From Chloroflexota bacterium (lineage in GTDB: Bacteria; Chloroflexota; Dehalococcoidia; JACPEP01): 64,000 bases of DNA. The first letter of the stretch is position 1. The number at the start of each line of letters is the position of its first letter. The stretch is from contig JACPEP010000001.1 in the NCBI GenBank assembly GCA_016183425.1, positions 62,001-126,000 of the forward strand, read 5' to 3'. Made by a program: the position numbers and the translations under genes. Shown one piece after another: positions 9,221 through 10,949 of this stretch. The notes under the pieces were generated by a model. It had not been told where the DNA came from. It was given only the letters and a program-made list of their open reading frames with translations, and made no database searches.

Positions 9221-9266
9221 TGGGCGATACAGAACTTGAACCTCTGGCCTTCTGTGTGTAAAACAG
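9221..9266 (-). pseudogene. 3' fragment of tRNA-Val (anticodon loop to 3' end), displaced duplicate
   Basis: 44/46 identical to 10876-10921 of the intact tRNA-Val; identity stops abruptly at the 5' side of the anticodon stem. Confidence 0.9.
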
Positions 9267-9333
9267 CGGCGTCAAAACGGTGTGGCCCAAAGCTGCGGTT
9301 GCCAGGGAAAAGCATCTGGCTATCATCTAAAAA

Positions 9334-9609
9334 TCAGTCCCTCTGAACCCTTCGATAAGTGCTCTCGGTGCGCCTTCCCACTCGGAGAATGACCACCAGG
9401 TTTTCGTTGTCGTATACCTCATAGACCACACGATAATCCCCTACTCTGATACGGTAAGCCCGTTCTCCACCCTGAAGCTTGCGCACCCCCTGGGGACGGG
9501 GCTCCTCAGCCAAGGCCATTATGACAGGTTCCAGCCTATCCCGCACCGGGAGCAGCAGCCGTCTCAGCTCCCTGCCCGCCGCCGGAGAGATTTCCACCCT
9601 ATAGGGCAC
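9334..9609 (-). CDS. RelE/ParE-family toxin
   Basis: VPYRVEISPAAGRELRRLL...VRKLQGGERAYRIRVGDYRVVYEVYDNENLVVILRVGRR; GTG start at 9609 preferred over the ORF start at 9723, which covers the antitoxin gene. Confidence 0.88.
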   Translation of the reverse strand: MPYRVEISPAAGRELRRLLLPVRDRLEPVIMALAEEPRPQGVRKLQGGERAYRIRVGDYRVVYEVYDNENLVVILRVGRRTESTYRRVQRD

Positions 9610-9856
9610 TGGACTTTCTTGTCTCCTCCGCCTTAAGCTGCTTAAAGAATTCCCCCACCTCTGTGCCGCCCTTCTCCTGCCACTCCCCTCGAGCTCCCTC
9701 GATGGCGGGTAGGAGCTCGGCATCCTCCTGGGCTTCCAGCCATTCCCGCAGAGCCTCGGTCACCACATCCTTCAGGGGGCAGTTGCGCCGGGCTGCCTCC
9801 ACCTTCACCGCTGTATACAGGGCCTCATCCTCAAAGAGAACGGTCATCCTCTTCAT
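9599..9856 (-). CDS. Antitoxin (RHH-like) paired with the RelE-like toxin
   Basis: MKRMTVLFEDEALYTAVKVEAARRNCPLKDVVTEALREWLEAQE; overlaps toxin start. Confidence 0.8.
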   Translation of the reverse strand: MKRMTVLFEDEALYTAVKVEAARRNCPLKDVVTEALREWLEAQEDAELLPAIEGARGEWQEKGGTEVGEFFKQLKAEETRKSSAL

Positions 9857-10099
9857 CTTTATTCTCCTATCCTATTGCTGACTCAGTCACTTCTACGCCG
9901 CTACGACAATTACTACTATACGCCCATACGCCTAACCCGTCAAGCCTCCCTAATGGCTATGTGTAGTGGGTCTGCCGCTGTGGAGGCAGCAATGTAACAG
10001 GCTTTTATGGTGGCTGGTTGGCTTTGTGGTGGAGCTGCGTGGACGGTATTAAGAACTTTCAGCCTAACTTTCCAACATTAGGCCAAGGTTATACAGCGA

Positions 10100-10825
10100 T
10101 CATGCGCCCGTGAAAGACTTGCATGATTGAAATTGCTCGAATGCTACCAACAGAATACCTCTTTTTTGCAACTCCGCTGCAAGTCCCTTAATTAACCCCT
10201 TCACTTGTTCATCTTGTTCGTTCTGTATCCAGGCTGATACATCCCATGAAAAGTCTATGAAGATAAACTTACTAGAGGCTTCAACTTTACTTAGCTGCTC
10301 TTCTCCCTTGTGCAGAGTATTCTTGACTTTTCTGAGGAGGGGATTTTCCCCGATGTTGGAGGATATGAGTCTCATGTTTACTGTTCGTACCTCACCCTGA
10401 TGACTCTTGAAATAGTCCCTATCTTCGTCTGAGGTCCGAATCTTCTTGCATGCCATCGCTGCGACAACCTGACCCGTATCGTCTTGGACTATTAAATCGG
10501 GCGGTTCTGAGAACCGAACCTCCTGTGACGGGTATTTATCTCTTAACCAGCCCCATCCGAGAACCTCAACCAAAGCCTCAAGGAATTGATCGTCGTATTC
10601 TCTCCTGAACTGTGTCGCACTTTTGGGAATTATATTGCTGAACCTTTTGGCAAGCTTCTCTTTCTCCGTATATGGCATGTCGCTGACGATCCTATCTAGC
10701 TTAACCAGAAGCTGTATAACTGCATTTTGCTGTCTGGCTTTGAATATCCAAGCTTGCCTACTGCTGATTTCCCCAGCCTTCTGTTCAAAGGTGCCCATTA
10801 CTTGCTGCAAGTTGTCGTAGGTCAT
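10100..10825 (-). CDS. Hypothetical protein, possible degenerate PD-(D/E)xK nuclease-like domain
   Basis: 241 aa; PPDLIVQDDTGQVVAAMACKKI resembles a PD-(D/E)xK core but lacks the E; AT-richer than surroundings. Confidence 0.6.
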   Translation of the reverse strand: MTYDNLQQVMGTFEQKAGEISSRQAWIFKARQQNAVIQLLVKLDRIVSDMPYTEKEKLAKRFSNIIPKSATQFRREYDDQFLEALVEVLGWGWLRDKYPSQEVRFSEPPDLIVQDDTGQVVAAMACKKIRTSDEDRDYFKSHQGEVRTVNMRLISSNIGENPLLRKVKNTLHKGEEQLSKVEASSKFIFIDFSWDVSAWIQNEQDEQVKGLIKGLAAELQKRGILLVAFEQFQSCKSFTGA

Positions 10826-10875
10826 CTCTACTTAGGAATACATCCTATTAGCTAATTCTGCTTAGCTTTTGCAAG

Positions 10876-10949
10876 TGGGCGATAGAGGACTTGAACCTCT
10901 GGCCTTCTGTGTGTAAAACAGACGCTCTAGCCGACTGAGCTAATCGCCC
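10876..10949 (-). tRNA. tRNA-Val (anticodon TAC)
   Basis: GGGCGATTAGCTCAGTCGGCTAGAGCGTCTGTTTTACACACAGAAGGCCAGAGGTTCAAGTCCTCTATCGCCCA: 7-bp acceptor stem, D, anticodon (TCTGT/ACAGA, loop TTTACAC) and T arms all pair; CCA not encoded. Confidence 0.97.

What the first reader, a model, noticed from the sequence alone, without database searches (positions are those of the whole stretch)
9221..10949. tRNA-Val-bounded islet: intact tRNA-Val(TAC) at one end, displaced 46-nt 3' tRNA fragment at the other, TA module plus orphan gene inside, no integrase
Seen directly: 9221-9266 is 44/46 identical to the 3' half of the tRNA-Val gene at 10876-10949, same orientation. Identity ends sharply at the anticodon stem. 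The fragment lies 3' of the intact tRNA, which is the geometry expected of attL/attR after site-specific integration into a tRNA gene. The roughly 1.6 kb between them holds a RelE-like TA pair, a noncoding stretch (9857-10099) and one AT-richer orphan ORF. The element is either a decayed integrative element that lost its integrase, or a very small satellite cargo mobilised in trans. The two T-arm mismatches in the fragment suggest the insertion is not recent.
Basis: partly seen in the sequence, partly recalled or inferred. Interest (0 to 1): 0.82.

Follow-up and report, generated by a model that had tools for sequence, protein, structure and literature searches.

The report
Integrase-less islet inserted at tRNA-Val
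A 1.6-kb piece of DNA carrying a toxin-antitoxin pair and one unknown gene appears to have been inserted into a tRNA gene by site-specific recombination, and it looks like a worn member of a widespread, apparently undescribed family of tiny, recombinase-free DNA cargoes that sit, often in rows, behind tRNA genes of Chloroflexota bacteria.

Summary
In detail: 9221-9266 matches the 3' half of tRNA-Val(TAC) (10875-10949) at 44/46, same orientation; the 1.6 kb between holds ParE/RHH toxin-antitoxin genes and one orphan, no integrase. The interpretation (decayed or trans-mobilised tRNA-integrated element) is supported and can be made specific. A 65-bp sequence just inside the fragment (9269-9333) is the right-end arm of an element family: a model built from 22 other loci, without the window, finds only that place in the window (E 1e-5), abutting the fragment. 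In other Chloroflexota the same arm abuts displaced 3' halves of tRNA-Val, Gly, Arg, Ala or Phe, often in tandem arrays of 0.7-2.7 kb islets, several with one gene, and no tyrosine recombinase was found inside the arrays. In four genomes whose family integrase lies about 0.1 kb behind a tRNA gene, the arm occurs beside the 3' half of that same tRNA. The window islet is most likely an old, integrase-less (CIME-like) member, probably immobile now: its arm is degenerate, no left arm is recognisable, and no close family integrase was found in the genome. Excision, empty site and mobility remain untested.

The parts
10875..10949 (-). intact tRNA-Val(TAC); 10876-10921 is the shared core (attL side)
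   Evidence: ARAGORN, Rfam RF00005, alignment
9221..9266 (-). displaced 3' half of tRNA-Val, 44/46 identical (attR core)
   Evidence: the same kind of fragment in L028, L029, L031, L052
9269..9333 (-). right-end arm of the element family (family consensus TTTTCAGATGATAACTGGACGCNTTTCGCTCGCC...GTGCCACAGCGCTTAG); degenerate here
   Evidence: only match of model R3, built without the window: 20.5 bits, E 1.4e-5 in 64 kb, E 5.9e-4 in the genome
9267..10874 (.). the islet (about 1.6 kb) between the two tRNA copies
9334..9624 (-). ParE/RelE-family toxin gene (start codon not settled)
   Evidence: PF05016 E 1e-12; PHROG RelE-like toxin E 5e-18
9599..9856 (-). ribbon-helix-helix antitoxin gene
   Evidence: PF21432 E 8e-6, just under its cut-off; position overlapping the toxin start
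10100..10825 (-). orphan cargo gene, 241 aa; PD-(D/E)xK-nuclease-like motif (PDLIV...AMACKK; most homologues read ECK), start codon about 50 bp from the tRNA 3' end
   Evidence: 15 environmental homologues, alignment A6, model pLDDT 86, weak best fold hit YaeQ
10021..10065 (+). 40-bp repeat with further copies at G000:C9:74220 and G000:C39:91501 and 90887, beside other toxin-antitoxin genes
8491..9060 (-). PemK/MazF-type toxin and CopG-type antitoxin pair just outside the fragment; possibly cargo of an older neighbouring islet, not shown
   Evidence: PF02452 E 2e-17, PF01402 E 1e-6; no second arm or fragment detected

Best explanation
The islet is an old, integrase-less (CIME-like) member of a Chloroflexota family of elements that insert into tRNA genes by tyrosine recombinase. 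Mechanism: the element carries a copy of the 3' half of the tRNA (anticodon loop to 3' end) beside binding arms; recombination with the chromosomal tRNA rebuilds an intact tRNA at one end and leaves the 3' half at the other, next to the right arm. Shown: both tRNA copies, the right arm, and integrase genes of one family behind the matching tRNA in relatives. Inferred: that this integrase family made the insertion; that the islet lost or never carried the integrase; that the ParE/RHH pair helped to keep it. It is now probably fixed.
For: Fragment and geometry. Model R3, built without the window, hits only 9269-9333, abutting the fragment. Of 36 places matched by R3, 25 are followed by at least 30 nt of a tRNA 3' half and 2 by about 22 nt; of 7 out-of-class hits not used for training, 6 are. 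Integrases related to G021's mostly lie about 100 bp from tRNA genes; in G021, G141, G087 and G194 the arm occurs beside the 3' half of the very tRNA that has the integrase behind it. Integrase-free arrays: G072 (Val), G180 (Gly), G135 (Arg), G356 (Gly). No family integrase remnant in the window islet.
Against: The arm scores 20.5 bits, against 40-68 for members the model was built from and 30-40 for untrained out-of-class ones. No left-end arm is recognisable after the intact tRNA (p about 0.45). No empty site, second strain or circular junction could be examined. In all four integrase genomes the two ends lie on different contigs, so their join is assumed.
Confidence: 0.86

Rival explanations
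1. Still mobile: a minimal non-autonomous cargo whose ends are recognised in trans (or in cis with a neighbour) by a family integrase supplied by an incoming element.
For: Elsewhere different cargoes share the same ends: the two tandem islets of G072 share about 45 bp of left end and the right arm; in G152 islets at tRNA-Phe and at a tRNA-Val half share about 100 bp of left end and the right arm; one-gene islets stand in tandem; no integrase found in arrays.
Against: The window's own arms are degenerate, its genome has no close family integrase (best 31% over a short stretch), and the arm occurs at full length only once in this genome.
Confidence: 0.12
2. Deletion derivative: a larger integrase-bearing element inserted here and later lost its middle, including the integrase. 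(A variant of the best explanation, about origin only, so the confidences overlap.)
For: The G168 tRNA-Val islet keeps a C-terminal integrase scrap directly behind the tRNA; the CIME definition describes this route (PMC5704250).
Against: No integrase remnant in the window islet or in 12 other islet stretches searched, apart from one marginal hit in G147, E 0.04.
Confidence: 0.45
3. The fragment is a remnant of an ancestral tandem tRNA array, not a recombination boundary.
For: In relatives tRNA-Val(TAC) often stands in a Leu-Arg-Val cluster.
Against: Those neighbours are other tRNAs and lie 5' of tRNA-Val, while the fragment is a 3' half 1.6 kb downstream; identity starts at the anticodon stem as in dozens of other loci and at other tRNAs; a conserved non-tRNA arm sits at its 5' edge.
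Confidence: 0.03
4. Chance similarity or assembly artefact.
For: The genome is a metagenome assembly in 52 contigs.
Against: E 7e-15 for the fragment, an independent E 1e-5 for the abutting arm, mid-contig position on a 142-kb contig.
Confidence: 0.01

Closest known systems
CIME (cis-mobilizable element) and tandem accretion, as in ICESt1-related islands of streptococci
   Same: att-bounded segment without integration or transfer genes next to the target gene; tandem arrays elsewhere in the family
   Different: Mostly 0.7-2.7 kb; I saw no ICE or conjugation genes (not searched for systematically); arms define a Chloroflexota family; tRNA 3' half of about 46 nt as core; cis or trans mobilisation not shown
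Dehalococcoides ssrA-specific genomic islands (McMurdie et al. 2011, PMC3146451)
   Same: Tandem islands bounded by repeats of the 3' end of a small-RNA gene, a conserved motif beside the repeat, 15 of 31 without an integration module and proposed as CIMEs; also Dehalococcoidia
   Different: Those use serine recombinases (DsiB), a 20-bp tmRNA repeat and carry dehalogenase genes; here tyrosine recombinases, about 46-nt halves of several tRNAs, a 65-70-bp arm and small cargo
Tycheposons (described in Prochlorococcus; read here through PMC10872708)
   Same: Cargo elements at tRNA genes linked to a tyrosine recombinase
   Different: Reported size 4-200 kb with a recombinase; these islets are mostly smaller and lack it
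Integron gene cassettes
   Same: Rows of often one-gene segments separated by a repeated recombination site, integrase possibly supplied elsewhere
   Different: The repeated site is an arm plus a tRNA half anchored at an intact tRNA gene; no attC site or integron integrase was noted, though no dedicated attC search was run

Membership tests
tRNA-integrated genomic element | Intact tRNA at one end and a near-identical 3' part at the other, same orientation | tested here: met
   44/46 over 46 nt
tRNA-integrated genomic element | Empty site in relatives | tested here: inconclusive
   Only class-level relatives held; most have tRNA-Val without such a fragment, but no syntenic empty site
tRNA-integrated genomic element | Own integrase gene (expected of autonomous ones) | tested here: not met
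   No PF00589 match on contig C47; no remnant
Chloroflexota arm / tRNA-half element family defined here | Conserved right-end arm abutting the tRNA half | tested here: met
   R3, built without the window: E 1.4e-5, sole hit
Chloroflexota arm / tRNA-half element family defined here | Left-end arm behind the intact tRNA (seen in many members, not a strict requirement) | tested here: inconclusive
   PWM score no better than background in the window; several integrase-free members (G072, G180) also lack an obvious one
CIME | Lost integration and transfer genes, keeps attL and attR | tested here: met
   Sequence level only; that genes were lost rather than never present is not shown
CIME | Can be mobilised by a related element | not testable with these tools
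   Needs an excision or transfer assay
Dehalococcoides ssrA islands | tmRNA target and serine recombinase | tested here: not met
   Target is tRNA-Val; linked enzymes in relatives are tyrosine recombinases
Integron cassette | attC site and integron integrase | not tested
   No dedicated attC search was run; repeat units are tRNA halves plus arm
Phage satellite | Phage-related genes or presence in viral contigs | tested here: not met
   Arm pattern in 0 IMG/VR contigs; of the islet genes only the toxin (RelE-like) and, weakly, the antitoxin (Arc-like) match PHROGs, the orphan none

The most novel reading that the evidence does not exclude
Chloroflexota have a tRNA-anchored gene-cassette system that works like an integron: a tyrosine recombinase acting in trans inserts tiny, often one-gene, integrase-free cassettes, each ending in a portable arm plus a tRNA 3' half, one after another behind an intact tRNA gene that serves as the entry site; the window islet is a worn example.
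Probability: 0.22. Interest if true: 0.85.

Novelty: new variant of a known kind. Interest (0 to 1): 0.55.

Why it matters
Integrase-less islets are usually passed over as single decayed islands. Here one leads to a recognisable end sequence that marks many such islets in Chloroflexota, at several tRNA genes, often in rows and several with a single gene. That gives a sequence handle for very small mobile cargo that integrase-based searches miss, and it makes testable whether cargo of about 1 kb without any recombination gene is captured and moved by integrases supplied elsewhere.

Tried and rejected
Left-end arm in the window: a PWM from 13 family left arms scores no better than background after the intact tRNA and after the fragment. 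A second islet holding the mazEF-type pair (8491-9060): suggested by weak similarity of the two post-tRNA stretches (p about 0.03), but no further arm or fragment was found, so not claimed. Models R1 and R2 included the window and are not used as evidence for it. Arm as a phage signature: none in viral contigs. Orphan as a mobility marker: only 2 further class genomes have a homologue at E<1e-6 (51% in G280, 32% in G146), with no tRNA nearby. PADLOC: no hit. Paper searches for such arrays in Chloroflexota found none in the library held, which lacks most subscription journals. Arm hits without a tRNA half (9 of 36, with G014:C76 among them; also those in G050) may be decayed ends or promoter look-alikes. 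The link between integrase and arm by co-occurrence across genomes is only modest (p 0.006, uncorrected for relatedness); the same-tRNA match in four genomes is the stronger evidence.

Full report
Observation. The window is G000:C47:62001-126000 of a 2.7-Mb, 52-contig metagenome-assembled genome. tRNA-Val(TAC) lies on the minus strand at 10949..10875. Bases 9221-9266 repeat its 3' half, 44 of 46 identical, in the same orientation. The match begins in the anticodon stem and ends at the tRNA 3' end; further on only a weak gapped similarity remains. Both mismatches are in the T-stem. The 1608 bp between hold, all on the minus strand, an orphan gene (10100-10825), a ribbon-helix-helix antitoxin and a ParE-family toxin. 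There is no integrase on this contig.

What the fragment abuts. A BLAST of the fragment with its flanks against class-level relatives showed that in G021 the similarity runs on past the fragment into the islet side, and alignment showed the same in two G014 contigs. I therefore collected the sequence that stands just 5' of displaced tRNA halves in other genomes. Searches with a first model (R1, including the window) and a second (R2, likewise) found it in 5 of 119 and 30 of 396 genomes. For an unbiased test I built R3 from 22 such ends in other genomes, leaving out the window and cutting each end at the start of the tRNA half, give or take a few bases. Over the whole window R3 reports one match, 9269-9333 minus, 20.5 bits, E 1.4e-5, ending 2 bases from the fragment. 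Over the genome its E-value is 5.9e-4, with one partial match of similar score on C11 that is not followed by a tRNA half. So two separate signals, tRNA half and arm, meet at the same place.

The family. Among 36 places matched by R3 in fetched loci, 25 are followed by at least 30 nt of a tRNA 3' half, directly or after 20-30 bases where the arm match itself was cut short, starting at tRNA position 28-32 in most and usually running to the tRNA 3' end; 2 more are followed by about 22 nt. Many of these loci also served to build R3, but without their tRNA bases. Targets are tRNA-Val(TAC and CAC), Gly(TCC), Arg(TCT), Ala(GGC) and Phe(GAA). Seven hits in other classes of the phylum, not used for training, gave six with a tRNA half, five Gly and one weaker Phe. 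A pattern scan of 85,488 species genomes gave 24 stretches, 23 labelled Chloroflexota, Chloroflexi or Dehalococcoidia and one 'Bacillota' MAG; viral contigs gave none.

Arrays. In several genomes intact tRNA, islet, tRNA half, islet, tRNA half follow each other: G072 tRNA-Val (1.7 and 0.7 kb), G180 tRNA-Gly (1.6, 0.8 and 1.2 kb, one long ORF each), G135 tRNA-Arg (2.4, 2.2, 2.7 and 1.1 kb), G356 tRNA-Gly (1.5 and 9.5 kb). G152 has a tRNA-Phe islet of 5.6 kb and, elsewhere, two Val(CAC) halves 4.4 kb apart; these islets share about 100 bp of left end, and their first and last proteins begin alike. No intact tRNA-Val lies within about 40 kb upstream of the latter. Median of 17 islets is 1.7 kb. 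No PF00589 match falls inside any of these arrays; one G135 islet is largely masked (N) in the held data and could hide one.

The enzyme. In G021 the intact tRNA-Val is followed by three copies of the arm core (TTCAGANGATAACTGNAC, 0-1 mismatch) and then by a tyrosine recombinase gene cut by the contig end. Relatives of that gene occur in 64 of 296 class genomes. Of the 19 nearest loci, 14 have a tRNA gene about 100 bp from the integrase, nine of them with the integrase behind the tRNA 3' end and five facing the other side; some share the arm core in the gap. Pfam assigns Phage_integrase and SAM-like domains. In G021, G141, G087 and G194 the right arm is found beside the 3' half of the tRNA that has the integrase behind it; in G266, whose integrase faces the other side of a tRNA-Lys, it is not. 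Genomes with strong integrase hits carry the arm more often than others (6 of 20 against 22 of 276, one-sided p 0.006, not corrected for relatedness).

Reading. The islet is bounded by what look like attL and attR of this family and has no integrase. The G168 tRNA-Val islet keeps a C-terminal scrap of an integrase right behind the tRNA, so deletion is one real route to such islets; the window islet and 12 other stretches show no clear scrap. The window's arm is weaker than nearly all the others tested, its left end is not recognisable, and the best integrase match in its genome is distant. I therefore think it is old and immobile, kept perhaps with help from its toxin-antitoxin pair; that last step is inference.

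Known counterparts. Segments with attL/attR but without integration genes are called CIMEs (PMC5704250). The nearest published case is the ssrA islands of Dehalococcoides, in tandem, 15 of 31 without an integration module, but with a serine recombinase and a tmRNA target (PMC3146451). I found no description of the present family in the library held; absence there is weak evidence.

Limits. Genomes are draft assemblies and contigs often break inside elements. No empty site, circular junction or activity was seen. Contig pairs such as G021:C40/C38 and G141:C32/C53 are assumed, not shown, to be two ends of one element.

Noticed in passing
window 10021-10065; G000:C9:74220-74243; G000:C39:91501-91524 and 90887-90910: A 40-bp repeat (core GTGGACGGTATTAAGAACTTTCAG) occurs four times in the genome, each time near toxin-antitoxin genes; on C39 two copies 614 bp apart bracket a HicB/HicA-like pair, as if that pair were a small cassette of its own.
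   Followed up: partly
L167 (G280:C2) 774-2238: The closest class relative of the orphan (51%) directly follows what look like a nucleotidyltransferase and a HEPN gene, that is, possibly another toxin-antitoxin pair.
   Followed up: partly
window 10100-10825: The orphan has a PD-(D/E)xK-like motif, but where most homologues read ECK the window protein reads ACK, so it may have lost catalysis; the fold search gives only a weak YaeQ match.
   Followed up: partly
L055 4708-4772, L057 4539-4596, L053 1466-1529: Arm-like sequences without a tRNA half stand upstream of host genes (for example before a methionyl-tRNA-synthetase-like gene in G050) and beside a frameshifted tyrosine recombinase gene; decayed ends or promoter look-alikes.
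   Followed up: no
L119 5911-10530 and L128 1003-6605 (G152): Islets at two different tRNA targets of one genome share both ends, and their first and last proteins begin alike, as if one element type had reached two tRNAs.
   Followed up: no
L144 374-436: The one hit outside Chloroflexota, a 'Bacillota' MAG, has the arm plus a 98% tRNA-Val half; may be a misbinned contig or a transfer.
   Followed up: no
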